DNA of 43,042 bases from Acidobacteriota bacterium (GTDB lineage Bacteria; Acidobacteriota; Vicinamibacteria; Vicinamibacterales; UBA8438): positions 1 to 43,042 of the forward strand of contig PBRZ01000152.1 in assembly GCA_002726085.1 (NCBI GenBank), written 5' to 3'. The stretch's first letter is position 1, and every line of letters begins with the position of its first letter. Position numbers and translations under genes: made by a program. This document shows positions 9,691 through 25,783 of the stretch, one piece after another. The notes below the pieces were generated by a model. That model was given only the letters and a program-made list of their open reading frames with translations. It searched no databases and had not been told where the DNA came from.

Positions 9691-10263
9691 TCATTCCCGC
9701 ATGCGCCGCTTAGTACTGCCCACCTCCTTCTCCGTGTCATTCGGTCTAACCGATAGGCGAAAGGTGCTCTGGCTTCTCACGCCACGCCCTTCATGCGGAT
9801 ACGTGTGCAGGGTCTCGACCGAAAGCATGGCTCCCTCGATACGCCAGCCGATATGCGTCATCGGCTCTTCTGCGCCCTGACCGACCCCGTATTTGACGAT
9901 GAGTTGCTCCGCTTCCGAGAAGTCGCCCTGCAGCCCGTCGCCCGCATCGAGCTCGAACGACGACAGCTGGCAATCGTACCGGAGGCTATCGATCGCACGA
10001 GAGATGACACAATCTATGCCGACAGCCCGCTGCTCCAGCACGTGTGCCTCGAGATCCCCAGCAGCGCAGGTCAGGAGCTCGGTCAGCGCGATGTCGCCTT
10101 TCTCGACCACCACCGCGTGACTCGTCCCCAGTGCGAAGAAGGTCACCACACGCCCCCCCCACAACACCCGGCGCACATCGAAGACCCGCAACGGCTCCAG
10201 GCGAGGGCGTCCGTCGAGCAGGAAGTAGTGAAGCGTCGCTGCGCTATGGGTTACTGGGGTCAC
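9691..10263 (-). CDS. DUF2617-like protein
   Basis: 190 residues, soluble. The pattern matches my recollection of DUF2617: an N-terminal TLHYFLLDGRPRLEPLRVFD strand region, a central EKGDIALTELLTCAAG, and a C-terminal WRIEGAMLSVETLHTYPHEG then QSTFRL. GTG 10263 was chosen because homology begins there; going further upstream would run into the opposite gene. No good Shine-Dalgarno is visible. It diverges from the membrane SpeE-like gene at 10419 with 155 bases between. Proteins of this kind are found near spermidine-synthase-like, DUF350 and DUF4178 genes in other bacteria, as far as I recall. Biochemical role unknown. Confidence 0.65.
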   Translation of the reverse strand: MTPVTHSAATLHYFLLDGRPRLEPLRVFDVRRVLWGGRVVTFFALGTSHAVVVEKGDIALTELLTCAAGDLEAHVLEQRAVGIDCVISRAIDSLRYDCQLSSFELDAGDGLQGDFSEAEQLIVKYGVGQGAEEPMTHIGWRIEGAMLSVETLHTYPHEGRGVRSQSTFRLSVRPNDTEKEVGSTKRRMRE

Positions 10264-10418
10264 TTGAGCAGGTGGGTCGTAGGAGCTCGATGGAACCGCG
10301 GCATCGTACCGAAGCCCCGGCCTGGAGTCAAAACACCGAACCCGGTGCGCCTGTTGCCTGAGCGTGGAGAGGGCCACATGTTGACCCCCGTCCACCTGGG
10401 CAGCAAGATGGTAACCGC

Positions 10419-11975
10419 ATGGACGATACGCGCGCAGCATCGACGGACCACGCCGGCATCAAGACCCGCGCGCTCCTGGTCGCGGTCTTCACCATCGCCA
10501 CCTGCGGGCTGATCTACGAGCTGCTGGCCGGGACTATCGCCAGCTACCTCCTGGGCGACAGCGTCACGCAGTTCTCGACCATCATAGGCGTCTATCTGTT
10601 CGCCATGGGGGTCGGCTCCTACCTCTCGCGCCACTTTCGACGCGACCTGGTCACGCGCTTTATCGAGATCGAGATCCTCGTGGGCGTCATCGGCGGCATC
10701 TCCTCGCCCGTGCTGTTCTTCGCGTTCGGCCAAATCGACGTCTTTCGGGTCGTGCTCTACGGCTGGGTCACGGCGACCGGCGTACTGGTCGGTCTGGAGA
10801 TCCCGTTTCTGATCCGCATCCTGGAGAACCAGTTTCCGCTGCGCGACCTGGTCTCGAAGGTGCTGTCGCTCGACTACTTGGGCGCGCTCGCGGCATCGCT
10901 GCTCTTTCCGCTTTGGCTTGTGCCACGGGTCGGGTTGATGCGGTCGTCGTTCGTGTTCGGTGTGCTCAATGTGCTGGTCGCAGTCTGGACCTGTCATCTC
11001 TTCCACGCCCAGCACCGCCGACCGTGGCTGACGGCCCAGGCCTATGGCGCGCTCGTCCTGCTTCTCTTGGGGGTGGCGTTCTCCGACGACCTGATGGAGC
11101 TGTCCGAGCGACAACTCTACGAGGACGCGGTGATCCTGTCTCGGTCCTCCCCCTATCAACGCATTGTGCTGACACAGAAGGACGGCGAAGTCCGTCTGTT
11201 TCTCAACGGCGACCTTCAGTTCTCGTCCCTCGACGAATACCGCTACCACGAAGCACTCGTCCATCCGGGTCTGGCCGCGGTGGCGACGCCCCGCCGGGTG
11301 CTGGTGCTGGGCGGTGGCGACGGGATGGCGGTCCGGGAGATCCTCAGAGACGACCGGGTCGAGCAGGTCACCCTGGTGGACCTCGACCCGATGATGACAG
11401 AGATTTTCGTCGAGCACGACGGGTTTGCCGCCCTCAACGACTATGCGCTCCGCTCGCCCCGGGTCGAGCTGGTCAACGCCGACGCCTTCATCTGGCTCGA
11501 GGAGGACGCGGGCCGCTACGACTTCATCGTCGTCGACTTCCCAGACCCCTCGAACTACTCACTTGGCAAGCTGTACACCACCACGTTTTATCTACGGCTC
11601 GCCGCCCACCTGGAAGCCGGCGGCGTCGTGGCGATTCAGAGCACATCGCCCCTGGTGTCCCGACAGGCGTTCTGGTGCATCGTCGAAACAGTGCGCGCGG
11701 CCGGGTTGCACGCAGCGCCCTATCACGCCTCCGTGCCGACCTTTGGGGAATGGGGCTTCGTCGTCGCGTCCCGAGAACCGTTTCAGGTTCCCACGCGCTT
11801 CCCCGACACACTCCGGTTCCTGACACCAGCCATCGCGGGGTCGCTCTTCGAGTTTCCGGCCGACATGGCTCGAGTGCCCGTCGAGGTCAATCACCTCAAT
11901 AACCAGATTCTGGTGCACTACCACACAGACGGCTGGAACCAGTATGCGCGCGCGCCAAGCCTCGACGCGCGATGA
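10419..11975 (+). CDS. Membrane-embedded spermidine-synthase-like aminopropyltransferase (copy 1)
   Basis: 518 residues. Residues 17-225 form about seven transmembrane helices; residues 230-510 form a spermidine-synthase-type Rossmann domain. Catalytic landmarks are kept: SSLDEYRYHEALVHP (269-283), the SAM-type nucleotide loop GGGDG (298-302), VDLDP (320-324) and the DFPDP motif (373-377) that in SpeE holds the amine. It should transfer an aminopropyl-like group from decarboxylated SAM, or act on a related substrate, at the inner face of the membrane. It shares a 4-base ATGA overlap with the flavin oxidoreductase gene. A paralogue lies at 21342. No SAM decarboxylase gene is in the window. Confidence 0.87.
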   Translation: MDDTRAASTDHAGIKTRALLVAVFTIATCGLIYELLAGTIASYLLGDSVTQFSTIIGVYLFAMGVGSYLSRHFRRDLVTRFIEIEILVGVIGGISSPVLFFAFGQIDVFRVVLYGWVTATGVLVGLEIPFLIRILENQFPLRDLVSKVLSLDYLGALAASLLFPLWLVPRVGLMRSSFVFGVLNVLVAVWTCHLFHAQHRRPWLTAQAYGALVLLLLGVAFSDDLMELSERQLYEDAVILSRSSPYQRIVLTQKDGEVRLFLNGDLQFSSLDEYRYHEALVHPGLAAVATPRRVLVLGGGDGMAVREILRDDRVEQVTLVDLDPMMTEIFVEHDGFAALNDYALRSPRVELVNADAFIWLEEDAGRYDFIVVDFPDPSNYSLGKLYTTTFYLRLAAHLEAGGVVAIQSTSPLVSRQAFWCIVETVRAAGLHAAPYHASVPTFGEWGFVVASREPFQVPTRFPDTLRFLTPAIAGSLFEFPADMARVPVEVNHLNNQILVHYHTDGWNQYARAPSLDAR

Positions 11976-13687
11976 GCTGCGGACCAGTTCGCCAGATGTC
12001 CAGACCACTAGACCCTCGTGCCCAACTAACCCGCCGAGACCTGTTATGGCTGGGTCCAACCGCGGCAGCCGCCATGGCGTTTGGCTGTTCGTCTCGGGCA
12101 CCAACCTCTCGACTCGACACTGGTCGAATCAGCGGGGGGATCGTCGGCGCCTCGCATCAGACCGGCCACCGTCTGCGAGAGGGGGGGCTTCCCGAGCCGC
12201 AACAGACACGCGAGGTGCCGGTGGTCATCGTGGGTGGTGGGGTCGCGGGCCTGTCGGCAGCCTGGAAGCTGGACAAGAGCGGGTTTCACGACTTTGCCCT
12301 GCTCGAGCTCGAACCGGAAACGGGCGGCAACGCGCGGTGGGGGCAGAACGAGGTCTCCGCCTACCCCTGGGGAGCCCACTATCTACCGGTGCCGCCCGTC
12401 GAAGCGACCGCGGTGCGTGAGTTGCTGGACGAGATGGGCATGATCCAGGCCTACGGCCCCGACAACGAACCGATCTATGACCCGCGGCATCTCTGCCATG
12501 CCCCGCAGGAACGTGTGTTCATCGACGACCAGTGGCGCGAGGGCCTCTCGGCGCAAGACCTGCTCGACCCCGACGGCACCGGCACGGTTGCGGCGCTCGC
12601 CGACTTCGAGGCGCAGGTCCGGCGGTATCAGAACTATCGGGACACGCGCGGGCGGAGAGCGTTTGCGCTCCCGGTGGCCGCAAGCACGAGCGACGCAGAG
12701 ATTGTCGCGCTCGACCAGATGTCGATGCGCGAGTACTTCGACCGTGCCGGATGGACCTCCCGGCGACTCCGCTGGTATGTCGATTTCTGTTGCCGCGACG
12801 ACTACGGCTGCACACTCGACACCACGTCAGCCTGGGCCGGCTGGCACTACTTCTGCTCACGCCCAGACAACGCCGAATACTTGACCTGGCCCGAGGGCAA
12901 CGGCCGCATCGTCCGACATTTCATGGACCGCGTCGCACCCCACGTCAACACCGGCATGCTGGTCTACCGCGTGGGTCCGTCCTCGCTTGCCGGAAGCGAC
13001 GGCCCGTCGGCCGACGACCTCGAGGTGGATGCGCTCGACTCCGGCACCGAGACCACGGTGCGATTTCGTGCGCGCCATGTCATCTATGCGCTCCCTCGAT
13101 TCACGGCCCGCCACGTCATCGAAGGATACGCCCCCTCGAACGTCAGGTTGGACGCCTTTACCTACTGCCCGTGGATGGTGGCGAACCTGACCGTAGGCCG
13201 ACTGCCGGATGGCGCGGCCTGGGACAACGTGCTCTATGACAGCCCGTCGCTGGGTTACGTCGTCGCGACCCACCAGGACCTGCGGATCGCACCGGGTCCC
13301 AGCGTCCTGACCTATTACCGGCCGCTCACCACACCCAACCCCGAGGTGGCCAGGACCTGGATGCTCGAGCGAAGCTGGGACGACTGGGTGTCACTGATCC
13401 TGGCCGACCTCGCGCAGGCCGATCCCGAGATCGAGTCCCTGGTGACGCACATCGACGTCATGCTCTGGGGACATGCCATGATTCGACCCGTGCCCGGCTT
13501 CGTGTGGGGCGAGCCACGACGCCGCGCCGCCGATCGCCACGGCAACATTCGTTTCGCCCACTCCGACATGAGCGGCATCTCGGTCTTTGAAGAGGCTCAG
13601 TTTCACGGCGTGCGAACGGCCGAGGAGATCATGCGGGAGCTCGGCCACCCCTACGTCAGCTCGCTGGCACCCGGTACAGATGTGTGA
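11972..13687 (+). CDS. Tat-exported FAD-dependent amine-oxidase-like oxidoreductase
   Basis: 571 residues. The N-terminus has a twin-arginine signal, TRRDLLWLG at 20-28, ending at AFGC, so C39 may be lipidated: a Tat lipoprotein with cofactor loaded in the cytoplasm. The FAD-binding dinucleotide loop is VVIVGGGVAGLSAAWKL (84-100), followed by an acidic strand end and ETGGNARWG, the amine-oxidase-like GG motif. The C-terminal FAD segment is HSDMSGISVFEEAQFHG. Translation is coupled to the SpeE-like gene by ATGA. An exported polyamine-oxidase-like enzyme next to an aminopropyltransferase suggests it acts on the product; the substrate is not shown by the sequence. ATG 11996 is an alternative start. 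Confidence 0.85.
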   Translation: MSCGPVRQMSRPLDPRAQLTRRDLLWLGPTAAAAMAFGCSSRAPTSRLDTGRISGGIVGASHQTGHRLREGGLPEPQQTREVPVVIVGGGVAGLSAAWKLDKSGFHDFALLELEPETGGNARWGQNEVSAYPWGAHYLPVPPVEATAVRELLDEMGMIQAYGPDNEPIYDPRHLCHAPQERVFIDDQWREGLSAQDLLDPDGTGTVAALADFEAQVRRYQNYRDTRGRRAFALPVAASTSDAEIVALDQMSMREYFDRAGWTSRRLRWYVDFCCRDDYGCTLDTTSAWAGWHYFCSRPDNAEYLTWPEGNGRIVRHFMDRVAPHVNTGMLVYRVGPSSLAGSDGPSADDLEVDALDSGTETTVRFRARHVIYALPRFTARHVIEGYAPSNVRLDAFTYCPWMVANLTVGRLPDGAAWDNVLYDSPSLGYVVATHQDLRIAPGPSVLTYYRPLTTPNPEVARTWMLERSWDDWVSLILADLAQADPEIESLVTHIDVMLWGHAMIRPVPGFVWGEPRRRAADRHGNIRFAHSDMSGISVFEEAQFHGVRTAEEIMRELGHPYVSSLAPGTDV

Positions 13688-14955: not shown

Positions 14956-14957
14956 GG

Positions 14958-16433
14958 TCACTCTGCTCCCTGTGTGCCGCCGTGTGTCGCGGGTGTCGCC
15001 TTCCAGAAATAGCGTCGAAAGCCGCGGGTGGTGTCGTAATCCTTGATCCTAAACATCATGCGCATCGGCTGACCAACGTGCAACTTCGTGCCGGGGTCGA
15101 TGTCGGCGAGGTCCATCATCGCTCGACCACCGTCGTCGAACTGCACCATACCGTAGTAGGCAGGGGGATCGGGGCAATAGGTGAGCCGATCGGCGGTATA
15201 GGAGTTGAGCGTGGCCGTCATCTCCGAGAACGGATGATCGTCCTGGCCATCGACGGCATCGCAGTCTGGCTTGGCGCAGACATTGCTCTTCGGGTATTGC
15301 AGGGTGCCGCAGGCTCGACATCGCCCACCGACGAAGCCGAGCAGCATATCCCTGTTGCGATAGAGCGTGGTCAGACCGGTCTGCTTGTCGACTTCGGCAC
15401 GTAGGCCACGTTCGATGGTCACGAGATCGTTGATGGCGAGGTAGCGCTGGTAGTTGTGCTCCGCGCGCCCGCGGGCAAGATGTCCACCGATTCCGGCAGA
15501 CGGGCTCGCCGCAGGCCGGTGCCGGCAGACTTCCACCACGACCGCGTCGCACCCCTGGCCGAACCCGGTCACGAGGAGCTTGTCGCCCGGGCGAGCCTCT
15601 TCGAGCGCATGGACGAGCATGAGTAGGGGGTGAGCCGCACCGGCCTCGCCGCAGGTTCCCTGCAGGTTGTCGCGGACGCTTGCATCAGGAATCCCGAGCT
15701 TGCTGGCGAGCGTGGCGGCGACCCGCCGGGCAGGCGACGGGAAACAGAAATGGTCGATCGCACCCGGGTCGACAGCGGCTGCTTCCAGTGCCCGAACTAC
15801 CGCCGCGGGCACGATCTTCAGGTACCCTTCGTCACGAATCCAACGTTCTTCCCACACGTAATCGAAGGCCTGGTCCTGTCCCCGGTAATGGTCGACGAAG
15901 TCGGCGGTTTCGGAGGCATAACCCAGCAGCCGTGCAATGCCATCCCCCTGACCAATGAGCAGCGCCGCAGCGCCATCGCCGGTCGTCAGCTCCAGCGAAC
16001 TCGCGGTCTTGGTGCGACGCTTTTCGGCGGCCACCACGAGAATCGGCCCGCCGTCGCCGGCCACCGTCTGAAGCGCAGTCAGCAGGGCCGACGTGCCGGC
16101 CCGTTGCGACCCGGCGATATCGAGGGTGTGCAGGCAGTGCCCCAGATGCAGCGCCTCGGCAACGATACCGGCGTTTTGCCGGTCCAGGAAGGGGAGGCTG
16201 GTCGATGCCAGGTAGACACCCCCGATGCCGTCCCGCTCGGAACTGCCGAGCGCGTCGCGGGCCGCTTCGACGGCCATCGTGACGGCATCCTCGTCCCAAT
16301 TGGCGATGGACCGCTCGCCTTTGCCGAGCCCTTTGAGACCGGGGTTGAACCAGGCGTTGGCTTCGGCGATGACCCGGCGTTGCAGGCGCAGGCGCGGCAC
16401 GTAGCCGCCAAACGCGTGTATTCCAACAGACAT
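14958..16433 (-). CDS. HMG-CoA-synthase-like condensing-fold protein with C-terminal Zn-ribbon/OB-fold
   Basis: 491 residues. Residues 1-330 are a thiolase-superfamily HMG-CoA-synthase-like domain (IHAFGGYVPRLRL, GVYLASTS, ELTTGDGAAALLIG, FCFPSPARRVA, DNLQGTCGEAGAAHPLLML). Residues 385-480 form a zinc ribbon (CRACG, then CAKPDC) and an OB-fold like those that bind acyl-CoA. At the position of the HMGS nucleophilic Cys (archaeal ACKAGT) this protein has SQRAGT, with Q110, so normal acyl-enzyme formation is unlikely. ATG 16433 opens the conserved MSVGIHAFGGYVP; upstream in-frame sequence belongs to another gene's shadow. Translationally coupled to the thiolase, with which it may form a complex. 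Confidence 0.83.
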   Translation of the reverse strand: MSVGIHAFGGYVPRLRLQRRVIAEANAWFNPGLKGLGKGERSIANWDEDAVTMAVEAARDALGSSERDGIGGVYLASTSLPFLDRQNAGIVAEALHLGHCLHTLDIAGSQRAGTSALLTALQTVAGDGGPILVVAAEKRRTKTASSLELTTGDGAAALLIGQGDGIARLLGYASETADFVDHYRGQDQAFDYVWEERWIRDEGYLKIVPAAVVRALEAAAVDPGAIDHFCFPSPARRVAATLASKLGIPDASVRDNLQGTCGEAGAAHPLLMLVHALEEARPGDKLLVTGFGQGCDAVVVEVCRHRPAASPSAGIGGHLARGRAEHNYQRYLAINDLVTIERGLRAEVDKQTGLTTLYRNRDMLLGFVGGRCRACGTLQYPKSNVCAKPDCDAVDGQDDHPFSEMTATLNSYTADRLTYCPDPPAYYGMVQFDDGGRAMMDLADIDPGTKLHVGQPMRMMFRIKDYDTTRGFRRYFWKATPATHGGTQGAE

Positions 16434-16485
16434 CGGCCACCAACCTTCTCTCAGCTCTCCTGAACCTGAATGCCGCAGTTCGGTA

Positions 16486-17349
16486 TCAGTCCGCGAGTTC
16501 GACCCGGCCGTTGTTGAGCACCGTGACATTCCGCTCGAGGGCCAGGGAACGAAAGGACACGACCTCGCCGTCGCGCCACATCTCGGTGCGAATCGTCTCA
16601 CCCGGATAGACAGGAGCAGAAAAGCGCAGCTGCAGCGACCCAAACCGCGCCGGGTCGTAGTCGCAGCAGGTCCTGAGCACGGCGTGCCCGGCGATGCCGA
16701 GCGTACACAGCCCGTGTAGGATGGGCGCGTTGAAACCGGCGGCGCGGGCCACCGCCGGATCGGCGTGCAACGGATTCGGATCGCCCGACAGCCGGTAGAC
16801 CAAGGCCGCCTGCGGCACGGTCGGCAGATCGCACACTGCGTCTGGCTCCCGTTCGGGCAGTGTGTGTGGCCGCGGCTGCGCCGTCGCCGGCCCACCGAAG
16901 CCGCCGTTACCGCGGGCCACCGTCGTCGACGACAGCGTGGCCAGGGGCTTACCGCTGTGTTTGTCGCGAATCTCTCGCCGCGAGTAAATCAGAGCGCCGC
17001 GGCCTTCACCCTTGTCGATGACCTCGGTCACCCGGGTTTGGGCAAGCACCGTGGTTGCCGCGGGCAGTGGCCTATGCAGCTCGATACCCTGTTCGCCGTG
17101 CAGCACCTGCTTCCAGTCCACGCCGGTCGCCGGATCACGGAACCAGAAGCCCGACGTCCCGAGCACCGCAGCCATTGTCGGCAGCGCGACCAGCTCCGGC
17201 TCCTCGAACACGAACGGAAGCTGTCCCTCGTCCAGCGGATCGGCGCCGACCCCGACACCGAGGGCATACAGCATCGTGTCCTTCTCGGTGTAGGTCTGTT
17301 CCACCGGCGTGAAGGGCCAGTTCATGAGTCTGTCGTAGTCGATCGGCAT
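16486..17349 (-). CDS. MaoC-family double hot-dog enoyl-CoA hydratase
   Basis: 287-residue hydratase adding water to 2-enoyl-CoA. The N-terminal half is a MaoC N-type hot-dog; the C-terminal half has the hydratase-2 signature with the catalytic pair D190 and H195 in YRLSGDPNPLHADPAVARAA, then FNAPILHGLCTLG. The length fits the eukaryotic-type double hot-dog hydratase 2. The start overlaps the SDR stop by one base (TAATG). In the operon it would act between the SDR dehydrogenase and the thiolase in a beta-oxidation-like sequence. Confidence 0.9.
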   Translation of the reverse strand: MPIDYDRLMNWPFTPVEQTYTEKDTMLYALGVGVGADPLDEGQLPFVFEEPELVALPTMAAVLGTSGFWFRDPATGVDWKQVLHGEQGIELHRPLPAATTVLAQTRVTEVIDKGEGRGALIYSRREIRDKHSGKPLATLSSTTVARGNGGFGGPATAQPRPHTLPEREPDAVCDLPTVPQAALVYRLSGDPNPLHADPAVARAAGFNAPILHGLCTLGIAGHAVLRTCCDYDPARFGSLQLRFSAPVYPGETIRTEMWRDGEVVSFRSLALERNVTVLNNGRVELAD

Positions 17350-18269
17350 TACACGGGATCCCAGCTGAAGATGTCCTGACTGCGGTGCAATGGGTAGAAG
17401 TCGGGCCGGAGCGCCGGAAAGGCGTGCTCGATGACGCGGCTTGGGGTCCACCCGCTGCTTTCCTGGACGCTGCGAAGCGGCCGATTCTGGCCCATCAGGA
17501 AGACCTCGTTGCTGCGAACCGCGAAGATCTGTCCGGTGATATCGGCGGCGGCATCAGAGGCCAGCGCGACGACCACCGGAGCAATCTTGTCGGGCGTCAT
17601 CCGCTTCAGCTTCTCCACCCGCGCCCGCTGTACATCGTCGGCGATCGGGATGGAGCCGATCAGGCGACTCCAGGCGAAGGGCGCGATGCAGTTGGAACGA
17701 ACATTGAAGCGCGACATGTCGAGCGCAATGGACTTCGACAGGCCGACGATGCCCAGTTTGGCGGCGGAGTAGTTGGCCTGGCCGAGGTTGCCGATCAGAC
17801 CCGAGGTAGACGTCATGTGGACGAAGGACCCAGCTTCCTGCGTGCGGAAGCGGCCGGCCGCGGCACTGGAAACGTTGAAACTTCCTTTCAGGTGGACATC
17901 GATCACCGCGTCCCAATCGCCTTCCGTCATCTTGTGAAAGATGACGTCGCGCAGGATCCCGGCGTTGTTGACGACGATGTCGATGCGGCCGAAACAGTCG
18001 AGCGCCTGTTCGATCATGCCGCGGGCCGCCGTGCTGTCGGCTACGCTGTCGAAGTTGGCTTCGGCCTCGCCACCTCCGTCTCGGATGGCGGTGACCGTCG
18101 CCATCGCCGGCGCCTGGTCCTGACCGTCACCACCTTCGCTCCCGCCGAGGTCGTTGACGATGACCCGCGCGCCGTGTGCCGCCAACAATTTGGCGACCTC
18201 GGCGCCGACGCCGCGCCCTGCACCGGTAACCAGGGCAACCTTGCCCTCTACCAACTTCGATTCGGACAT
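17349..18269 (-). CDS. Short-chain dehydrogenase/reductase, HSD17B4-like 3-hydroxyacyl-CoA dehydrogenase
   Basis: 306-residue NAD(P)-dependent SDR. The nucleotide loop is TGAGRGVG (15-22), with an acidic N-D at the end of beta-2 favouring NAD; NNAG is at 101-104; the catalytic set is Ser in TSTSG near 155, Y167 and K171 in ANYSAAK. The C-terminal 60 residues extend beyond a minimal SDR and resemble the dehydrogenase module of peroxisomal multifunctional enzyme 2. ATG 18269 has GGAGGAGAG just upstream. First gene of the four-gene acyl-CoA operon, overlapping MaoC by one base. The substrate could be a branched or long acyl chain or a sterol side chain; undecided. Confidence 0.9.
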   Translation of the reverse strand: MSESKLVEGKVALVTGAGRGVGAEVAKLLAAHGARVIVNDLGGSEGGDGQDQAPAMATVTAIRDGGGEAEANFDSVADSTAARGMIEQALDCFGRIDIVVNNAGILRDVIFHKMTEGDWDAVIDVHLKGSFNVSSAAAGRFRTQEAGSFVHMTSTSGLIGNLGQANYSAAKLGIVGLSKSIALDMSRFNVRSNCIAPFAWSRLIGSIPIADDVQRARVEKLKRMTPDKIAPVVVALASDAAADITGQIFAVRSNEVFLMGQNRPLRSVQESSGWTPSRVIEHAFPALRPDFYPLHRSQDIFSWDPV

Positions 18270-18621
18270 GCTCTCCTCCGACGACGCTCCCCCTCGTTCG
18301 CCATTGTCGACAACGTCTCGAGACTTGACTCCTCTCGATAGCTGCCGGCGACATCGCCGCCGCCCCACAGCGCGCCGCGTGTCTGACTCGATGCAATCAG
18401 CCGCGCGGAGCCCCGGTGGCGAGAAGATGAAGAGGTCAACAACAGCGGTAGACGATGGCACTTTCATCGACCACCGTCATGATACGAAGGGCAGGGCGTA
18501 AATGATAGGGACGCAGACGAGAGCACGCAGCTGTTGTGTCGACATCGCGAGGCAAGGCTTTCGCCTTGCCTCGCAGGCCTGAAGGCCTGCGCCACATAAC
18601 CAGCACAAGAAAGCTCTGGGG
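18270..18621. other. Gap between the acyl-CoA operon and the pspA-like gene
   Basis: 352 bases holding the promoter region of the SDR operon and the tandem hairpins at 18547-18590. Open frames across it are low-quality extensions of neighbours. No further gene is supported. Confidence 0.5.
18547..18590 (-). terminator. Tandem GC-rich hairpins behind the nine-gene operon
   Basis: GCGAGGCAAGGC (18547-18558) pairs perfectly with 18563-18574 across a TTTC loop. GCAGGCCT pairs with AGGCCTGC at 18573-18590, sharing its first two bases with the first stem. They lie 32 bases past the pspA-like stop codon. No U-tract follows, so this may be a 3-prime stabiliser or factor-assisted terminator. Confidence 0.6.
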
Positions 18622-19335
18622 TTAGGCGGTCGCGATCCCCATCTTCTTCTTCAGCTCGGCCAACGAATCGGCACCGGCGCTACTCGAGGGCGCAGCCAAG
18701 GCCTTGTCGATGTCCTCGTCAATGTCCCCACCGACGTCGGCAAGCTGGTCATACGCCTCGGCGAGCGACTCCTCTTCCTGGACCTTTTGCTTCATCTTTT
18801 CGAGCATGGCCACCGTGCCGGACGCGTCGGCGCCCGCGAGCTGCTGATTGATCTTGCGCATCGACGATGCGGTGCGTGCCCGGGCCTTCAAGGTGATGGC
18901 CTCGTTTTCGTACGTGCTGATTTGCCGCTTGAGGTCCTCGACCTTGGCCTGGAGCTGGTCGGCCATTCGCTGCTGGGTCTGGTGGTCGGTGTTCGCCGTC
19001 GCGGTCTGCTGCACCTCTTCCTCCTTCTTCTCCAGCGCGGCGGTCGCCAGACGCTCGGCCTCACCCGCCTCCATCTCTCCCGCTTCCATCTTCTTGAGAA
19101 TCAGCATCGCCTTGCGCTCGTAGTCCGCGGCACGCTTCTTGTGGTCGGACGTCTCCTTCTGCATCCGAATGGCGAGCGACTTCACTTGCGCAAGACTGAC
19201 CATCGCGGCCTGGAGGTTCTTCTTGAGATCGCGAATCCCCTGTTCGGTCATCTTGATCGGGTCTTCTAGGCTATCCATCGCGGCGTGGGCGTTCGATTCG
19301 GCAACCTTGAACATCCTGCGAAAAATGCTGGCCAT
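18622..19335 (-). CDS. PspA/IM30 family protein (YjfJ-like)
   Basis: 237-residue, almost wholly helical coiled-coil protein of the phage-shock-protein A/IM30/ESCRT-III family, which assembles on the inner face of stressed membranes. Begins MASIFRRMFKVAESNAHAAM, then EDPIKMTEQGIRDLKKNLQ, the family signature; long charged helices run from residues 30 to 165 and a short C-terminal helix ends LAELKKKMGIA. AGGAGA lies 8 nt before ATG 19335. It is the last gene of the operon, 23 bases after DUF2170, the same pairing as E. coli yjfI-yjfJ. Confidence 0.9.
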   Translation of the reverse strand: MASIFRRMFKVAESNAHAAMDSLEDPIKMTEQGIRDLKKNLQAAMVSLAQVKSLAIRMQKETSDHKKRAADYERKAMLILKKMEAGEMEAGEAERLATAALEKKEEEVQQTATANTDHQTQQRMADQLQAKVEDLKRQISTYENEAITLKARARTASSMRKINQQLAGADASGTVAMLEKMKQKVQEEESLAEAYDQLADVGGDIDEDIDKALAAPSSSAGADSLAELKKKMGIATA

Positions 19336-19358
19336 GACTACGTCTCCTGGGACACGAG

Positions 19359-19754
19359 CTATTTCTTTAGATAGGTGAGCAGCTCAGCGCCGTACTCCGC
19401 CAGCGCCAAGGAGAGGGCCCGGATCGAACCCTCGAGCTCGTTGAGATCGAGATGGGCAAGCTGCAGCGTATCGCGATAAAAAATACGCCCGGCGTCTTCA
19501 TCGAGCACAAAGGCGCCGTGCACCAAGGTGTTGTTCATCTGCAGCAACCGGACGAACAGATTGCGCGGATCGGCCGGCACCTCGGCGATCAGCTGTTCGA
19601 GGACGACGATTGGGGGCTCACAGTCTATGACCAGCTGCTTGATCCCGTTGTCCTCATCATCGACCACCACCAGCTCCTCGGCTTCGTTTTCCGTGACAAT
19701 CGTGAGATCGAGGTCGAGCAGATAGCCCTTTACCCGATCGAGATGCTCAGACAT
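19359..19754 (-). CDS. DUF2170 family protein (YjfI-like)
   Basis: 131-residue acidic cytosolic protein. Opens MSEHLDRVKGYLLDLDLTIV; the central DCEPPIVVLEQLIAEVP and LFVRLLQMNNTLVHGAFVLD, then FRDTLQ-like FYRDTLQLAHLDLNELEGSI, fit DUF2170. The fold resembles small type III secretion chaperone-like proteins; the precise role is unknown. GGAGG lies 9 nt before ATG 19754. It sits directly before the pspA-like gene, as yjfI precedes yjfJ, and probably regulates or accompanies PspA. Confidence 0.85.
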   Translation of the reverse strand: MSEHLDRVKGYLLDLDLTIVTENEAEELVVVDDEDNGIKQLVIDCEPPIVVLEQLIAEVPADPRNLFVRLLQMNNTLVHGAFVLDEDAGRIFYRDTLQLAHLDLNELEGSIRALSLALAEYGAELLTYLKK

Positions 19755-19784
19755 CAATCAACGCCTCCTTCTTCATCTGTGATC

Positions 19785-20201
19785 CTATCGTTGTTTACGA
19801 TCCAGTCGGTCGAGCAGTTCATCGTGGGCCCGGTTGAGACCCTGAGCCAACTGGGTCGCGATCCGCTTCTTGTCGGGATCGGCCGAATGGAGGTCGGGGT
19901 GATATCGCTTGAGGAGCCTCCTCCGGGCCTCCCGTACCGCGTCGATGTCGGCCCCGTAGGACAGTTCGAGGTTGGCATAATACTCTGCCAGCTCCGGATC
20001 CCGTGACGGCGCACCACGCCCACCGACCGCCGCGGCCTCAGGCCGTGACGCGGTGTCTTCTCCGACCGTTCGCCCTTGTTCCCGATCTGTGCTCGGGTCT
20101 CGCCGATGTGAATGTCGAACACCGGCGCCCCACCGGCGCGCACCCAACCGCCCCGACAGCTCGCTCTTCAGCAGCACGCCCACGCGTCCGATGAATGACA
20201 T
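19785..20201 (-). CDS. J-domain (DnaJ-like) protein with PspA-like N-terminus
   Basis: 138 residues. A J-domain fills the C-terminal half (ELAEYYANLELSYGADIDAV through RAHDELLDRL) with the Hsp70-activating HPD at 101-103 in LKRYHPDLHS. The N-terminus MSFIGRVGVLLKSELS resembles the first amphipathic helix of PspA-type proteins. ATG 20201 was chosen on that resemblance; an in-frame GTG at 20225 overlapping the channel stop (GTGA) and an ATG at 20216 are alternatives. The linker (20-68) is basic and disordered. Its position between the channel and DUF2170/PspA suggests it recruits Hsp70 to the PspA assembly. Confidence 0.8.
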   Translation of the reverse strand: MSFIGRVGVLLKSELSGRLGARRWGAGVRHSHRRDPSTDREQGRTVGEDTASRPEAAAVGGRGAPSRDPELAEYYANLELSYGADIDAVREARRRLLKRYHPDLHSADPDKKRIATQLAQGLNRAHDELLDRLDRKQR

Positions 20202-20221
20202 GTTTGTGACGAACATTCCTC

Positions 20222-21262
20222 TCACGACGCGTGGCGCTTACGCGCCGAGACGACTACCAGCCGATCATCCGCATTGACGATGGTATCTCCATCGGGGTTC
20301 GTCACCACGTCGCCCGCTCCATGCGGCAGCACGGCCAAGGCAATCATGCCGTCTTCACGCTTCAGATCGGAAAACACGTCGAAGAAGGGGCGCCCCGCCA
20401 ACCCCACCGGGACCGGGACGGTGATGAGATCGTGGCCCACCTGGGCGCTCAAGAGCTCACGCAACACGGTGGAGATGCCGTGGTCCAGGGTCGCGGTCGA
20501 GATGACACGGCTGCTGAACTCGGCCCCGACGATGATCTCATCGGCGCCGGCGCGCTCGCAGTGGCGGACGTTCTCTTCGCTCACCAGCTCGACGATCGAA
20601 TAGGCGTCAGGGTTGAGGCTTTCGACCGTCAACACCGACAGCACCGCTTTGGCATCCCGTGCCCCCTGCTCCAAGGACCGGTCGCCGACGAGCACAACGG
20701 TGGCCGCCTTTTCGATGCCGGCTCGCTTCAGTTGCTCTTCGGTCAGCTCGCCACGCACGAAATAGAGCTGCTCGTCCACCACCGGCTTCGCATCGATATC
20801 GGCCACGAGCACGATCGGGGCGCCTGCTGCGCGCGAGTCGGCCCGGAGATCCTTGAGGATCTCCCGCGTCCGGTCGTTCCATCCGCACAGGATGATGTGA
20901 CCATCCAGGTCGTACGAACCCATGCCCCGCTCCTTCCTCAACCGCTTCTCGACGAACACACCGGCGATAGTCGCCGTGAACATGCCGAGCACACCAATGC
21001 CAAAAAACATGAGCACGACGCCGATCAGCCGGCCGCCGGGCGAAGTCGGAGAGATGTCTCCGAAGCCGACCGTGGTCAGGGTGACAATGGCCCACCAGAG
21101 TGCGTCGGGAAACGGTCGGTTCTCCTCGAAGTAGGTGAGCCCAGCGGCCCCGACAAGAATCAACAAGACGATGACACCCATCAACCGGAAAAGGTTCTCC
21201 CGGTGCAGAAAGGCCAGAAGCTCCAGAAACGGGTGCGCCACCTTGGTCTTGAACACACTCAT
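20222..21262 (-). CDS. Two-helix potassium channel with RCK/TrkA-N domain
   Basis: 346 residues. TM1 is at 25-45; the pore loop carries the K+ selectivity filter TVGFGD (64-69) in LWWAIVTLTTVGFGDISPTS; TM2 is GVVLMFFGIGVLGMFTATIAGVFV. A cytosolic RCK Rossmann domain starts at GHIILCGWNDRTREILKDL and extends through IVLVADIDAKP; a TrkA-C-like region ends RLVVVSARKR. It would pass K+ under control of a nucleotide or ion bound to RCK. ATG 21262 begins the conserved protein; the ribosome site is weak. Its position in a PspA-centred operon links membrane potential to the envelope-stress module. Confidence 0.9.
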   Translation of the reverse strand: MSVFKTKVAHPFLELLAFLHRENLFRLMGVIVLLILVGAAGLTYFEENRPFPDALWWAIVTLTTVGFGDISPTSPGGRLIGVVLMFFGIGVLGMFTATIAGVFVEKRLRKERGMGSYDLDGHIILCGWNDRTREILKDLRADSRAAGAPIVLVADIDAKPVVDEQLYFVRGELTEEQLKRAGIEKAATVVLVGDRSLEQGARDAKAVLSVLTVESLNPDAYSIVELVSEENVRHCERAGADEIIVGAEFSSRVISTATLDHGISTVLRELLSAQVGHDLITVPVPVGLAGRPFFDVFSDLKREDGMIALAVLPHGAGDVVTNPDGDTIVNADDRLVVVSARKRHAS

Positions 21263-21314
21263 CACGCCGTCTCGGCCTGAACTGAATCAAACACTGGCGC
21301 AGCCCTCCGGCGTC

Positions 21315-21336
21315 CTTCTGCCTCCTGCCTCCTTGG
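21315..21336. repeat. CTCCTG-type intergenic tract
   Basis: CTTCTGCCTCCTGCCTCCTT-type sequence with period 7, in the gap between the SpeE-like stop and the channel start. Similar tracts occur at 25869-25898 and 28315-28345, with short forms at 30903-30914 and 32194-32210. Confidence 0.5.
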
Positions 21337-21341
21337 GTCCG

Positions 21342-22910
21342 CTAATACACATCCCAGTCCCCGTCCCGATAGTAGTAGAAGATCGCGAAATTGATCTCAT
21401 CGCTCACCTCGACCTCGTCGTCGAAGCCTTTACCGAAGTGCAGCATGCTCACCATCGCGTCACGATTGAGAAAGCGCGTCCCCAGCGACTCGAAACTGAG
21501 CGCAGCGAGGCGCTGGCTGAGCCAGTCGTCCCGCGGCACCGTGCCATCGCGACCGCGCATACCCAGCACCCATCCCCACTCCCCCATCGTCGGCACATGG
21601 TTGTGATACGAAGCGGTCATCAGCCCAGCCGCCTCCATCGTCGCACTCACCGAGAGAAACGCGCGGCGCGTGAAGAACGGGCTCGTTGCCTGGGTGACAA
21701 CGACACCGCCTGGTGAGAGCCGCCGGTGCGCCAGGCGATAGAGCTCGAGACCGTAGAGCCGGGCGAGATCGATGGTTCGCGGGTCGGGAAGATCCACCAC
21801 AATGACGTCCCAATACATGTTGTCGGCATCGCGCAGGTAGGCGTACCCATCTTGGTTCTCGACCGACACACGCGGGTCGGCAAAGGCGTCCTGGTTCAGG
21901 TCGACCAACACCTCGTGTGTCCGCCCGAGTGTGGTCATCGCCGCGTCGATGTCGACCAGAGTCACGTCCATGACTTCGGGGTGTCGCAACACTTCGCGCA
22001 GCGCCATGCCGTCTCCGCCGCCCAGGATCAAGATGTGACGCCGCGCCGCACTTGCCAGCATGGCCGGATGCACGAGCGGCTCGTGATACCGCTCTTCGTC
22101 GTAGGAGCTGAACTGCGTATGACCATCGAGATACAGCCAGTGGTGGTCGCGGAACCGGGTCATCACAATCCGCTGGTAGCGCGTCTGCTCCTGATAGATC
22201 ACCTGGTCCCGATACTTACGCTGCTCGCCGAACAGCACGATCGGCTCGGCCAGCACGGCCAAGGCAATCAGGAAGAGCGAAGCCCCGGCAAACGACACAC
22301 TCAGAACGCGACGCCAGGCGAACACCTGGCGATGACGCGCAAACAGTAGACCGGCCACCACCAGATTGATGGCGCCGAGCGCGATCGGCGTGTAGGTGAG
22401 CCCGAGAAACGGCAACGCCACAAAAGCAAACAGCACGCCGCCAAGCAGGGCGCCGTAGTAGTCATATTCGAGCACCGAGCTGATGTTCACACGCAGCTCG
22501 TCGAACACCTGATTGAGCCGGGTCGCGAGCGGAATCTCGATGCCGATCAGGAGGCCGATGGTCACGGAGATGCCGTAGATGATCGGCGCCAGGTTCGTCG
22601 TCCAGCCGGACAAAAAGTAGGCCAGCGTGGCACTCGTCGCACAGACCACCGACAGGAGGAGCTCTACTGTGACGAACGCATCCAGGATCGCCCCGCGAAT
22701 GAACCGACTGAGCCGGCTCCCCACCCCCATCGCAAAGAGCATCAGAGATACGGTGAGGGTCCACTGCAGCACCGCATCCCCGATGAGATAGCTCGCAAGC
22801 GTGGCCATCACATATTCAGCCACGACACCGGCCAGGCCGGTGGCGAAGATGCAGGCTTTGAGCACCAGGCCCTGGGATGGGTCCTGGCGAACGGTGGCAG
22901 GTGTCGTCAT
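21342..22910 (-). CDS. Membrane-embedded spermidine-synthase-like aminopropyltransferase (copy 2)
   Basis: 522 residues, same architecture as the protein at 10419: seven or so transmembrane helices over residues 15-225, then a SpeE-type domain. SSYDEERYHEPLVHP, GGGDG (297-301), VDIDAAM and DLPDP (373-377) are kept, so catalysis is plausible. The C-terminus ends in an acidic, aromatic tail (FYYYRDGDWDVY). It lies between DUF350 and the K+ channel. The two paralogues are clearly diverged, so they may use different amine acceptors. The source of decarboxylated SAM is not in the window. Confidence 0.87.
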   Translation of the reverse strand: MTTPATVRQDPSQGLVLKACIFATGLAGVVAEYVMATLASYLIGDAVLQWTLTVSLMLFAMGVGSRLSRFIRGAILDAFVTVELLLSVVCATSATLAYFLSGWTTNLAPIIYGISVTIGLLIGIEIPLATRLNQVFDELRVNISSVLEYDYYGALLGGVLFAFVALPFLGLTYTPIALGAINLVVAGLLFARHRQVFAWRRVLSVSFAGASLFLIALAVLAEPIVLFGEQRKYRDQVIYQEQTRYQRIVMTRFRDHHWLYLDGHTQFSSYDEERYHEPLVHPAMLASAARRHILILGGGDGMALREVLRHPEVMDVTLVDIDAAMTTLGRTHEVLVDLNQDAFADPRVSVENQDGYAYLRDADNMYWDVIVVDLPDPRTIDLARLYGLELYRLAHRRLSPGGVVVTQATSPFFTRRAFLSVSATMEAAGLMTASYHNHVPTMGEWGWVLGMRGRDGTVPRDDWLSQRLAALSFESLGTRFLNRDAMVSMLHFGKGFDDEVEVSDEINFAIFYYYRDGDWDVY

Positions 22911-22984
22911 GCGTTCGCCGAGCCTGGACTGATGTACCGGCCCCTACGCCGACCATCGTCCGAGCAGTGTCAGGCGCAGCGCCG

Positions 22985-23827
22985 CTACAACGTCAAGCCG
23001 ATCAACATGGACGCGGCGAAATAGGTGGCCGCTTCGATGATCCCAGCGCCCAGGTTGGGCGGGTCCTTTACAAGCTCGGCGCTCAGGCTCGCTCCCGGCA
23101 GGAGCACCTTGTCGGCGAAGAGCCTGATGAGCGGCAACAAGATCAACCCGACGACGGTGTAGTACCCGAAGACCCACAGGCTTTCGTTCCAGGAGACGAA
23201 ATCGCCGTCACCCGCCAGGCGGATGATGTTCCCAAATCCGACCAACACGCCGGCAAACGCGACCCCCACCGCAGTATTGTCCTTTTCGATTTGATCGTGC
23301 AGATCGTATGAGGTGATCTTGTCGTAGAGCAGCCCGGCAACGACGAGCGCAATCAGACCTGCAATCCAAAAGACCAACCCTGGGAGCAACCCGCCTTCGC
23401 CCGACATCGCCCCGGCCGTGATCAGGCCCACCGCGACATAGTTGCCCCCTTCGACGGCACCCATGCCGGCGTTGCGGTCTTCGACGATCTCCCGCTCGTT
23501 GTCGAACTTCGAAAAGACCACCGTGTCGTTGACCCAGGCCGACAGATTGAGCAGTACGATCCCCAGCACCCCGAAGATCACGAGCCCGATCACGTCGTCG
23601 GCCACGCTGAACGACGCGGGCCCAGACACCACGCCGCCAAGTACGATCACTACCCCCAGGTAGTAGCCCGCCACAGCGAGCGCGACAGCCAGGTTGTCCT
23701 TCTCGACGAGCTCCGTCCGGAGCACGAAGCGTCGGTGCAAGCCGTCGTACAGCCATTTGCCGAGAACGAGCAGACCGAGGACGACCGCCAGATAGATGAA
23801 GCCCGTCAGAATCTGATCCACCGACAT
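22985..23827 (-). CDS. Double DUF350 membrane protein (YjfL-like)
   Basis: 280-residue integral membrane protein of two tandem DUF350 units, each with about four helices. The repeated hallmark is visible: LVEKDNLAVALAVAGYYLGV in unit 1 and QIEKDNTAVGVAFAGVLVGF in unit 2. E. coli YjfL has a single unit, so this is a doubled form. GAGGAG lies 7 nt before ATG 23827. Cotranscribed between the lipoprotein and the SpeE-like gene. Function unknown; DUF350 proteins recur with PspA/DUF4178 in envelope-stress clusters. Confidence 0.9.
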   Translation of the reverse strand: MSVDQILTGFIYLAVVLGLLVLGKWLYDGLHRRFVLRTELVEKDNLAVALAVAGYYLGVVIVLGGVVSGPASFSVADDVIGLVIFGVLGIVLLNLSAWVNDTVVFSKFDNEREIVEDRNAGMGAVEGGNYVAVGLITAGAMSGEGGLLPGLVFWIAGLIALVVAGLLYDKITSYDLHDQIEKDNTAVGVAFAGVLVGFGNIIRLAGDGDFVSWNESLWVFGYYTVVGLILLPLIRLFADKVLLPGASLSAELVKDPPNLGAGIIEAATYFAASMLIGLTL

Positions 23828-23843
23828 AATGCGCTCCTCGAGA

Positions 23844-24575
23844 CTACTTACCGCCGAACCGCGTTCCGCCCGACATCCGACCGTTCACCCGCTGACCGAA
23901 CGACTGGCTACGCGCGGCTTGTCGCGACTGTTGTCGCCGGAAGAAGTTGGGATTGGTCTGCCTGGTGACCGACCCGTTCGAGCCATACTCGCCAGCCGGA
24001 CCGTAGTAGGTCTGGCCACGATCTCGAGCGCTCCGATACCCGTTCCAGTCGTTTCGGTAAATCGGGCGACCGAAGCCTCCGATCATGTGGCTCAGCAGGG
24101 CGTATTGACCGTAGAACACCCAGAATGATCGCCCGCCGCCCTCGTCGCGCCATTGACCATAACGCTCGTTGCCGACCTGTTGATAGCCGGGCGGGTGCTG
24201 GTTCTGGTCGACAACGCCATCGGGCCCCTTCGAGAGGATCACCATTCCGAGATGGGGCTGATATTGCTCGTAGGTCCGGCGACCGACCTGTTGCCAGTCG
24301 AGAATGGAGTCTCGGTACACCATATCCTCAGCCCCGGCCTGAGGCTCGCCAATGACTACTCCGTACTGGTGATAGTACCCATCCTCCCGCATGTCCTGCA
24401 GAGTGACCGAGTACTCCGGGTACTGCTCGAGCTGCCCCTGCAGGCGCTCGAGCGGCGTCGTGGTATCGCACGCCACCGTGACCATGCCGATGGCGATCAG
24501 AGTGGCCAGAACGGGAACCAGACGGAACGGCACCGCCTGGCCTGAGACGCTCGACGATGTGAGGCAGAGCTTCAC
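23844..24575 (-). CDS. Lipoprotein of the DUF350/DUF4178 cluster, family not identified
   Basis: 243 residues. GTG 24575 overlaps the DUF4178 stop (GTGA) and has GGGGAG 6 nt upstream. The signal helix 16-35 ends at the lipobox VTVAC (C36). The mature part is rich in Tyr, Gln, Gly and Arg (DGYYHQYGVVIGEP, WVFYGQYALLSHMIGG) and ends in a Ser/Arg/Gly tail (SFGQRVNGRMSGG). It occupies the place of YjfM/YgiB-type proteins in the enterobacterial set, and its Gly/Ser/Arg tail is reminiscent of theirs, but homology cannot be claimed. Probably membrane-anchored in the periplasm. Confidence 0.75.
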   Translation of the reverse strand: MKLCLTSSSVSGQAVPFRLVPVLATLIAIGMVTVACDTTTPLERLQGQLEQYPEYSVTLQDMREDGYYHQYGVVIGEPQAGAEDMVYRDSILDWQQVGRRTYEQYQPHLGMVILSKGPDGVVDQNQHPPGYQQVGNERYGQWRDEGGGRSFWVFYGQYALLSHMIGGFGRPIYRNDWNGYRSARDRGQTYYGPAGEYGSNGSVTRQTNPNFFRRQQSRQAARSQSFGQRVNGRMSGGTRFGGK

Positions 24576-25120
24576 TGCAGACTCCCCGGCAAGATGTGGG
24601 TGAACTGGTAGTCTTCCACGACGAAACCGGCCGCCGCCGCGAATTCGGACTCGCTCCACTGCTCAATACCGACAAACGTCGTCTCGGCCCCATCCAGAAA
24701 CTCCCACCGAAACAGATCTGCCCCGGTGCCCGTCCCACCAGGGAACATCTGACCGGCGTAGGAGGCGTCGATGTGAAACTCCGTACCCTCGAATACGATC
24801 CGCTCGGGTGGATCTTCGTGGTCGAGGATGTGGCGCCGAATGTCGCCGTCGATGTCACCGATGGCAATCTTCCTGGAGAGCGACCAGGCACCGTCGGCCC
24901 GCTCAAGATAGCGCTGCTCCCCGGCGGCCGTCAGCTCCCACTCTTCGACGCTGTCATCCTTGCCAGAGAAGTCGTACCGGCAATAGTTGGTCACCTGCCA
25001 GGTCTGCAGGTCGTAATCCACGAGATAGCCAACTTTGAGCTTCTCCAGGACCAGGTCGGCAAGCGGATCCGGCCCCTCATCCACTTTCTTCTTGCCGAAC
25101 AGTCGATCTGTCAAGCCCAT
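24572..25120 (-). CDS. DUF4178 family protein
   Basis: 182-residue soluble protein. Starts MGLTDRLFGKKK. The DUF4178 core is evident in VGYLVDYDLQTWQVTNYCRY, EEWELTAAGEQRYLERA and DGAWSLSRKIAIGDID, with a repeat-like beta half from FEGTEFHIDASYAGQM to TFVGIEQWSE. YjfK of E. coli occupies the equivalent position in its operon. ATG 25120 was chosen at the family start; GAGAGCG serves as a weak ribosome site. It overlaps the lipoprotein gene by 4 bases. Function unknown; usually encoded with DUF350 and SpeE-like genes. Confidence 0.87.
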   Translation of the reverse strand: MGLTDRLFGKKKVDEGPDPLADLVLEKLKVGYLVDYDLQTWQVTNYCRYDFSGKDDSVEEWELTAAGEQRYLERADGAWSLSRKIAIGDIDGDIRRHILDHEDPPERIVFEGTEFHIDASYAGQMFPGGTGTGADLFRWEFLDGAETTFVGIEQWSESEFAAAAGFVVEDYQFTHILPGSLQ

Positions 25121-25216
25121 GGGACGCTCTCGCTCGTCTGTCTGCACTGAATCTCTGGTACGACACTAGCAGGAAACAACAAGGGTCGCAATTCGCGGAC
25201 CGACGCCGAAGAGGTG

Positions 25217-25783
25217 CTAGCGATGTCGCCCCAGCTCGTCTCTGAAGTCGGGCGGGCGTTCCCTCGGATCAGCGCGACGTCGAAACAACGCGTGAGCGCC
25301 CCATTTCATGAACCCAAACGCCACCGCAGCAATAGCGAAGAGCAAGAAAATCGACCCGCCAAAGAAGAGCCACAACCGGGTCTTCGAAATCGCCAGAGCC
25401 ACGGCAAAGCTGACGCCGATGAGCGTCATCAAACCAGAGAGCCGGTGAAACCCCGGGACCGCGGCAAAGTCGACGTTCTGGCCAAGCAGCACCAATGTTA
25501 CGACCATCGAGGCGACTGGCAGCAAGTACACCAGTGCGTTGACCTCGAGCAGGTTGACGGATGTGAAGAAGAGCGTGTACGTCGTGACCACGGCGGCAAA
25601 CAGCCCTGGCGCGCAGCTGATGTAAATCAGGGTGGCGTAGAGGTATCTCCACGGCGTCGTCCCGCCTTGACCGCGTCCATGGAGACGCCCCACCACCCAG
25701 GTCGCGAGCGGCACGGAGACGAACACACCCAGAAGAGTCCAGGGGTAACGACCCGCCTGCAGCAGGAGCTCTTGAATCGTCAC
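25217..25783 (-). CDS. Five-helix membrane protein, first gene of the stress operon
   Basis: 188 residues with about five transmembrane segments: YPWTLLGVFVSVPLATWVV, LYATLIYISCAPGLFAAVV, ALVYLLPVASMVVTLVLLG, LMTLIGVSFAVALAI and LWLFFGGSIFLLFAIAAVAF, then a basic cytosolic tail (HALFRRRADPRERP). GTG 25783 was chosen because upstream in-frame sequence is non-protein-like; there is no evident Shine-Dalgarno. It lies 96 bases before DUF4178 in the same direction. No family was recognised; it is probably specific to this kind of cluster. Confidence 0.72.
   Translation of the reverse strand: MTIQELLLQAGRYPWTLLGVFVSVPLATWVVGRLHGRGQGGTTPWRYLYATLIYISCAPGLFAAVVTTYTLFFTSVNLLEVNALVYLLPVASMVVTLVLLGQNVDFAAVPGFHRLSGLMTLIGVSFAVALAISKTRLWLFFGGSIFLLFAIAAVAFGFMKWGAHALFRRRADPRERPPDFRDELGRHR

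What the first reader, a model, noticed from the sequence alone, without database searches (positions are those of the whole stretch)
18622..25783. Nine-gene PspA-centred membrane module: expanded yjf-like system with SpeE, K+ channel and J-protein
Nine same-strand genes, most overlapping or under 100 bases apart, join DUF4178, a lipoprotein, double DUF350, a membrane SpeE-like enzyme, an RCK potassium channel, a J-domain protein, DUF2170 and PspA/IM30. DUF2170-PspA and the DUF350/DUF4178 pair match enterobacterial yjfI/yjfJ/yjfL/yjfK positions (established for the families). The enzyme, channel and chaperone adaptor are additions, and the YjfC ATP-grasp gene is missing. Inference: a single envelope-stress unit coupling membrane potential, polyamine-type chemistry and PspA scaffolding.
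Basis: partly seen in the sequence, partly recalled or inferred. Interest (0 to 1): 0.8.

Follow-up and report, generated by a model that had tools for sequence, protein, structure and literature searches.

The report
PspA membrane-repair operon with extra genes
In an uncultured acidobacterium, a known bacterial membrane-repair operon (the polymer-forming protein PspA, its chaperone and a membrane polyamine-type enzyme) has gained a potassium channel and a small helper of the DnaK chaperone, which suggests a testable answer to how bacterial PspA polymers are taken apart.

Summary
The nine same-strand genes are real and intact. The core is already published: it is the second group of CesT/Tir-PspA operons of Ravi et al. 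2024 (PMC11237479), made of CesT/Tir, PspA, membrane SpeE, double DUF350, lipoprotein and DUF4178. SpeE is therefore core, not an addition. It is not an expanded yjf operon either: g8 is CesT_Tir_1, not DUF2170, and E. coli YjfK is DUF2491, not DUF4178.

The real additions are a MthK-like potassium channel and a short J-domain protein. The channel is in the operon in all 16 sampled family relatives, beside 8 of 18 CesT loci in a second phylum (under 1% expected) and in a Myxococcota-labelled genome. The J-protein is rare: the window's clade, a broken copy in L050, and one locus of another phylum that holds all eight core and added gene types in rotated order.

Best reading: a membrane-stress unit whose PspA polymer is handled by a CesT-like chaperone and, where the J-protein exists, by DnaK, as CDJ2-HSP70B handles VIPP1 in chloroplasts. 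Interactions, transcription and enzyme substrate are untested. The conserved locus also extends beyond the given coordinates to a convergent oxidase-SpeE2 pair.

The parts
25217..25783 (-). g1: membrane protein, five hydrophobic segments, no known family; found at the same place only in the sister genus
24572..25120 (-). g2: DUF4178, predicted soluble beta-rich protein
   Evidence: Pfam 8e-16; model pLDDT 88.6
23844..24575 (-). g3: lipoprotein with invariant Cys36 and invariant C-terminal Gly-Lys
   Evidence: alignment of 14 homologues
22985..23827 (-). g4: double DUF350 (YjfL-like) membrane protein
21342..22910 (-). g5: SpeE1, membrane domain plus aminopropyltransferase domain
20222..21265 (-). 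g6: MthK-like 2TM-RCK potassium channel
19785..20225 (-). g7: short J-domain protein (J-domain at the C-terminal end; likely start ATG 20201)
19359..19754 (-). g8: CesT/Tir-like chaperone (PF22550)
18622..19335 (-). g9: PspA/IM30 (ESCRT-III superfamily)
11972..13687 (+). FAD amine-oxidase-like gene, convergent with the operon in family loci that reach that far
10419..11975 (+). SpeE2, second membrane aminopropyltransferase, a clade distinct from SpeE1
9691..10365 (-). DUF2617, divergent from SpeE2 (start not fixed)
   Evidence: Pfam 1e-10; same place in L050

Best explanation
It is a variant of the published class-2 CesT/Tir-PspA envelope-stress operon. Probable working: PspA polymerises on the stressed inner membrane (established for the family). 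The CesT-like chaperone holds or delivers PspA subunits (inferred from fixed pairing). The J-protein recruits DnaK to PspA and drives ATP-dependent assembly and disassembly, as CDJ2-HSP70B does on VIPP1 in chloroplasts (inferred). The MthK-like channel opens to K+ when its RCK ring binds a ligand and so adjusts or reports membrane potential at the same sites (inferred). The membrane aminopropyltransferase, with double DUF350, lipoprotein and DUF4178, makes or attaches an aminopropyl/polyamine-type group at the membrane (inferred). Shown here: gene content, intact ORFs, linkage conserved across phyla, conserved catalytic and selectivity-filter motifs, purifying selection on the J-domain.
For: Nine tight same-strand ORFs. 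Match to Ravi et al. group 2, with L089 as a channel-free, J-free example in the same phylum. Channel in all 16 family loci and beside CesT in 8 of 18 loci of another phylum. All eight types g2-g9 together in L119 in rotated order. J-domain dN/dS 0.08-0.24 with invariant HPD. CDJ2-HSP70B-CGE1 assembles and disassembles VIPP1, and E. coli DnaK can replace HSP70B.
Against: No interaction, expression or phenotype data. The J-protein is absent from most loci, so it is not essential to the system. SpeE1 is absent from most family loci. No AdoMet decarboxylase was found in the four genomes of the genus, so the enzyme's donor is unexplained. No promoter signal was found.
Confidence: 0.45

Rival explanations
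1. The J-protein serves the channel, helping to fold, insert or turn over that membrane protein, and has no role on PspA.
For: The J gene directly follows the channel gene in every locus that has it, and overlaps it in the window.
Against: Most loci have the channel without a J gene. The J gene also always lies directly before CesT-PspA. The known precedent for a dedicated J-protein on this superfamily is CDJ2-VIPP1.
Confidence: 0.25
2. The neighbours are separate membrane-stress genes kept together only for co-expression; there is no joint complex and the channel and SpeE do not act on PspA.
For: The parts move as modules: order is shuffled between phyla, and CesT-channel-PspA or CesT-PspA-DUF4178 can stand apart from lipoprotein-DUF350-SpeE.
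Against: Repeated re-association of the same modules across phyla, and channel placement directly between CesT and PspA in L123-L125.
Confidence: 0.25
3. It is an expanded enterobacterial yjf operon.
For: Shares DUF350 and a weakly similar PspA, YjfJ; the chaperone is placed in the same CesT/Tir superfamily by Ravi et al..
Against: No DUF2170, DUF2491, DUF1190 or GSP_synth found; a different published group fits.
Confidence: 0.05

Closest known systems
Second major group of CesT/Tir-PspA operons (Ravi et al. 2024, PMC11237479)
   Same: CesT/Tir-PspA pair, TM-SpeE, double DUF350, lipoprotein and DUF4178
   Different: The window adds an RCK potassium channel, a J-protein and membrane protein g1; the paper's main text gives no channel or J-protein for this group
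Third group / enterobacterial yjfIJKLMC
   Same: PspA relative, CesT-superfamily chaperone, DUF350; Ravi et al. also report a potassium channel in this group
   Different: No GSP ATP-grasp, DUF2491 or DUF1190; DUF350 is doubled; chaperone is PF22550, not DUF2170
Chloroplast VIPP1 with CDJ2-HSP70B-CGE1
   Same: A J-domain protein tied to a PspA-family polymer
   Different: Here the tie is gene linkage only; no interaction is shown, and homology of g7 to CDJ2 beyond the J-domain was not tested
MthK potassium channel
   Same: Two-TM pore with an RCK ring; match over residues 27-336, E 1.4e-27
   Different: Of the calcium-ligand glutamates (numbers from memory) E210 is kept and E212 is Val, so the ligand may differ
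DUF2617 / SpeE / polyamine-oxidase operon variants (Ravi et al. 2024)
   Same: The neighbouring DUF2617, SpeE2 and amine-oxidase-like genes
   Different: Convergent with the PspA operon here instead of replacing it; no AdoMet decarboxylase found in this genome

Membership tests
Ravi group 2 CesT/Tir-PspA operon | CesT/Tir-like gene paired with pspA | tested here: met
   PF22550 and PspA_IM30 adjacent; same pair in the related loci
Ravi group 2 CesT/Tir-PspA operon | Spermine/spermidine-like synthase fused to an N-terminal 7TM domain | tested here: met
   Spermine_synth and NF002956; seven hydrophobic segments, the second marginal in some homologues
Ravi group 2 CesT/Tir-PspA operon | 8TM DUF350 and DUF4178 | tested here: met
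   Two DUF350 stretches and one DUF4178; the simple count gives seven of eight segments
Ravi group 2 CesT/Tir-PspA operon | Lipoprotein with Ctha_1186 domain | tested here: inconclusive
   Invariant lipobox Cys and same position, but no Pfam model matches
Enterobacterial yjf / Ravi group 3 | DUF2170 (YjfI) chaperone | tested here: not met
   PF22550 instead; no profile match to YjfI. Superfamily relation is reported in PMC11237479
Enterobacterial yjf / Ravi group 3 | GSP-like ATP-grasp ligase | tested here: not met
   No PF03738 in the recovered genome (88.65% complete)
Enterobacterial yjf / Ravi group 3 | DUF2491 and DUF1190 | tested here: not met
   No Pfam match in the nine genes; no profile match to YjfK or YjfM
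[quoted passage not shown]
   Ion_trans_2 plus TrkA_N; MthK match
Canonical PspF-PspABC system | PspB/PspC partners | tested here: not met
   None among the nine genes
Canonical PspF-PspABC system | Sigma-54 promoter | tested here: inconclusive
   No -24/-12 site within 300 bp upstream of g1, g2 or homologues by a simple scan
CDJ2-HSP70-type VIPP1 remodelling | J-domain with HPD motif linked to a PspA-family gene | tested here: met
   linkage
CDJ2-HSP70-type VIPP1 remodelling | ATP-dependent assembly/disassembly of the polymer | not testable with these tools
   Needs purified proteins

The most novel reading that the evidence does not exclude
A dedicated J-protein makes DnaK the bacterial counterpart of Vps4: it recycles PspA (ESCRT-III) polymers at membrane sites where an RCK potassium channel and a membrane aminopropyltransferase also act.
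Probability: 0.3. Interest if true: 0.78.

Novelty: new variant of a known kind. Interest (0 to 1): 0.5.

Why it matters
Bacterial PspA is an ESCRT-III relative without a generally known disassembly ATPase; Ravi et al. state that it is unknown how PspA homologues without an associated AAA ATPase control assembly. A J-protein encoded directly before the CesT-PspA pair gives a concrete candidate, DnaK, that can be tested with purified proteins. The recurrent channel ties the SpeE class of PspA operons to ion flow, which the main text of that survey does not describe for this class.

Tried and rejected
Expanded yjf operon: rejected by the family tests. SpeE as a recent addition: rejected, since operonic SpeE1 enzymes form one group (100/99) across three phyla, distinct from SpeE2. 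PspA-like amphipathic N-terminal anchor on the J-protein: hydrophobic moments do not exceed shuffles. C-terminal PspA motif LAxLKxKMG as a CesT-specific tag: rejected, because canonical E. coli PspA ends in a similar way. DUF4178 fold: good model, but no Foldseek match at E <= 0.001 and only weak alignments (profilin Z 6.2; EF-P/eIF5A Z 3 to 5), not evidence of function. Lipoprotein fold: model too poor to search (pLDDT 61.3). Sigma-54 site: none found. Sigma-70-like and terminator scans: no more sites than in shuffles. Chaperone profile against solved structures: no credible match.

Full report
OBSERVATION. The minus strand from 25783 to 18622 holds nine intact ORFs in tight series, with two 4-bp overlaps and no gap above 96 bp. 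Pfam confirms DUF4178, double DUF350, Spermine_synth, Ion_trans_2 with TrkA_N, DnaJ and PspA_IM30. The eighth gene is CesT_Tir_1 (PF22550, 4.8e-48), not DUF2170; g1 and the lipoprotein have no family. NCBIfam places the enzyme in NF002956, polyamine aminopropyltransferase, above its cut-off.

SOURCE. The window lies in a 4.64-Mb draft genome, listed as 88.65% complete with 5.64% contamination. Its closest named relatives are Acidobacteriota/Vicinamibacterales draft genomes.

WITHIN THE FAMILY. PF22550 occurs in 17 of 60 genomes searched (the window's own included), all in the window's family. Stretches were read from the 16 others. DUF4178, lipoprotein, DUF350 x2, channel, CesT and PspA keep the same order in all of them wherever the contig reaches, and so does L050, a Bryobacterales-titled genome. 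The channel is present in all 16. The operonic SpeE1 is present only in the window's genus (L030) and one sister genus (L028, L029, L033). The J-protein occurs in those same loci and, with one in-frame stop, in L050.

A LARGER LOCUS. Convergent with the operon lies an FAD amine-oxidase-like gene in the family loci that reach that far, usually followed by a second membrane aminopropyltransferase, SpeE2. In L025 SpeE2 lies upstream of the operon, and in L022 and L023 it was not found in the stretch. L030, of the window's own genus, has the acyl-CoA block there and its contig ends before any oxidase. In the window the pair is at 10419-13687, separated from pspA by that block (thiolase, one ORF without a family test, MaoC, SDR). 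DUF2617 is divergent from SpeE2. The given coordinates therefore cut the conserved locus short.

OUTSIDE THE FAMILY. L089, another acidobacterium, has DUF4178-lipoprotein-DUF350-SpeE1-CesT-PspA with neither channel nor J. This is the second group of CesT/Tir-PspA operons of Ravi et al. (PMC11237479). In the phylum of G432 (Thermodesulfobacteriota by the label of L053), 18 of 297 genomes have PF22550, several only weakly. There, L119 has channel-J-CesT-PspA-DUF4178-lipoprotein-DUF350-SpeE1; L125 has DUF4178-lipoprotein-DUF350-SpeE1-CesT-channel-PspA; L123 and L124 have CesT-channel-PspA. L118, from a Myxococcota-labelled genome, has channel-CesT-PspA-DUF4178. A channel-anchored search recovered a divergent form that was not in the query alignment: SpeE-x-DUF350-x-channel-CesT-PspA in L194, with L193 a partial copy; L192 and L195 have the SpeE-DUF350-channel part without CesT or PspA in the stretch. 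Many other channel homologues in that search are not beside PspA. In 8 of 18 PF22550 loci a channel lies within 1.5 kb; under a generous random-placement model P is about 6e-13, not corrected for relatedness. Four Pseudomonadota loci have CesT-PspA-x-DUF350-x-SpeE without a channel.

SpeE1 AND SpeE2. A maximum-likelihood tree separates SpeE1 (13 rows) from SpeE2 (19 rows) with 100/99 support, and the window's SpeE1 lies nearest the other acidobacterial operonic enzymes (that join 94/87). The simplest reading is that SpeE1 is ancestral to the class and was lost in much of the family, while the channel was added; this history is inferred.

J-PROTEIN. It looks like a real gene: J-domain dN/dS is 0.08 between congeners and 0.15-0.24 across genera, and HPD is invariant. 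It is rare: a J-anchored search of 297 genomes gave one strong match, the locus already in the alignment. The parallel is chloroplast CDJ2, which with HSP70B and CGE1 assembles and disassembles VIPP1, a PspA-family protein (PMC10602608); E. coli DnaK can replace HSP70B (PMC6882379). Ravi et al. call the control of PspA assembly without an AAA ATPase unknown, and DnaJ, J-domain, Hsp70 and DnaK do not occur in their main text. That a J-protein with DnaK fills this role is inference.

CHANNEL. The closest solved relative is MthK (E 1.4e-27). Filter and RCK are kept; one of the two calcium-ligand glutamates checked is replaced (numbers from memory), so the gating ligand is open. Polyamine block of potassium channels is known for other channels (own knowledge) and offers one possible link to SpeE; it was not tested.

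ENZYME. The GGGDG, DLPDP and YHE motifs are kept in alignment with solved aminopropyltransferases. A simple hydropathy count gives seven TM segments with positive loops alternating, which would place the catalytic domain outside the cytoplasm; the second segment is marginal in some homologues, so this is unsettled. No AdoMet decarboxylase was found in the four genomes of the genus, although four of five genomes of the sister genus have a strong one. All four genus genomes are incomplete, so absence is likely but not proven.

VERDICT. A real and conserved module: a published class with a potassium channel as a recurrent addition and a J-protein as a rare one. Only one paper in the held library mentions DUF4178, and its supplements could not be read, so earlier notice of the channel in this group cannot be excluded.

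Noticed in passing
window 9691-13687: DUF2617, SpeE2 and an FAD amine-oxidase-like gene form a second polyamine-type cluster convergent with the PspA operon in most family loci.
   Followed up: partly
window 13750-18467: Acyl-CoA-type gene block (thiolase, an ORF without a family test, MaoC, SDR) between pspA and the oxidase; among the sampled loci seen only in the window and its congener L030.
   Followed up: partly
window 23844-24575: All 14 aligned lipoproteins end in Gly-Lys after an Arg/Ser-rich tail. An invariant C-terminus could be a binding or modification site, perhaps of the membrane SpeE.
   Followed up: no
window 21342-22910 and 10419-11975: Both membrane SpeE proteins have seven predicted TM segments with a pattern that would put the enzyme domain outside the cytoplasm, where its usual donor is not expected.
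   Followed up: partly
own genome G000 and congeners G001-G003: Two membrane SpeE genes in the window but no AdoMet decarboxylase found in any of four genomes of the genus.
   Followed up: partly
L050:12016-12417: The J-protein reading frame is interrupted by one in-frame stop in the linker: decayed gene, sequence error or internal start.
   Followed up: no
L032:9681-9896: A separate fragment resembling the channel C-terminus follows an otherwise nearly full-length channel gene.
   Followed up: no
L055 and L057 (JAPOYI010000062): A contig titled Gammaproteobacteria carries short, broken pieces similar to DUF350, channel and PspA; a decayed or misassembled copy of the module.
   Followed up: no
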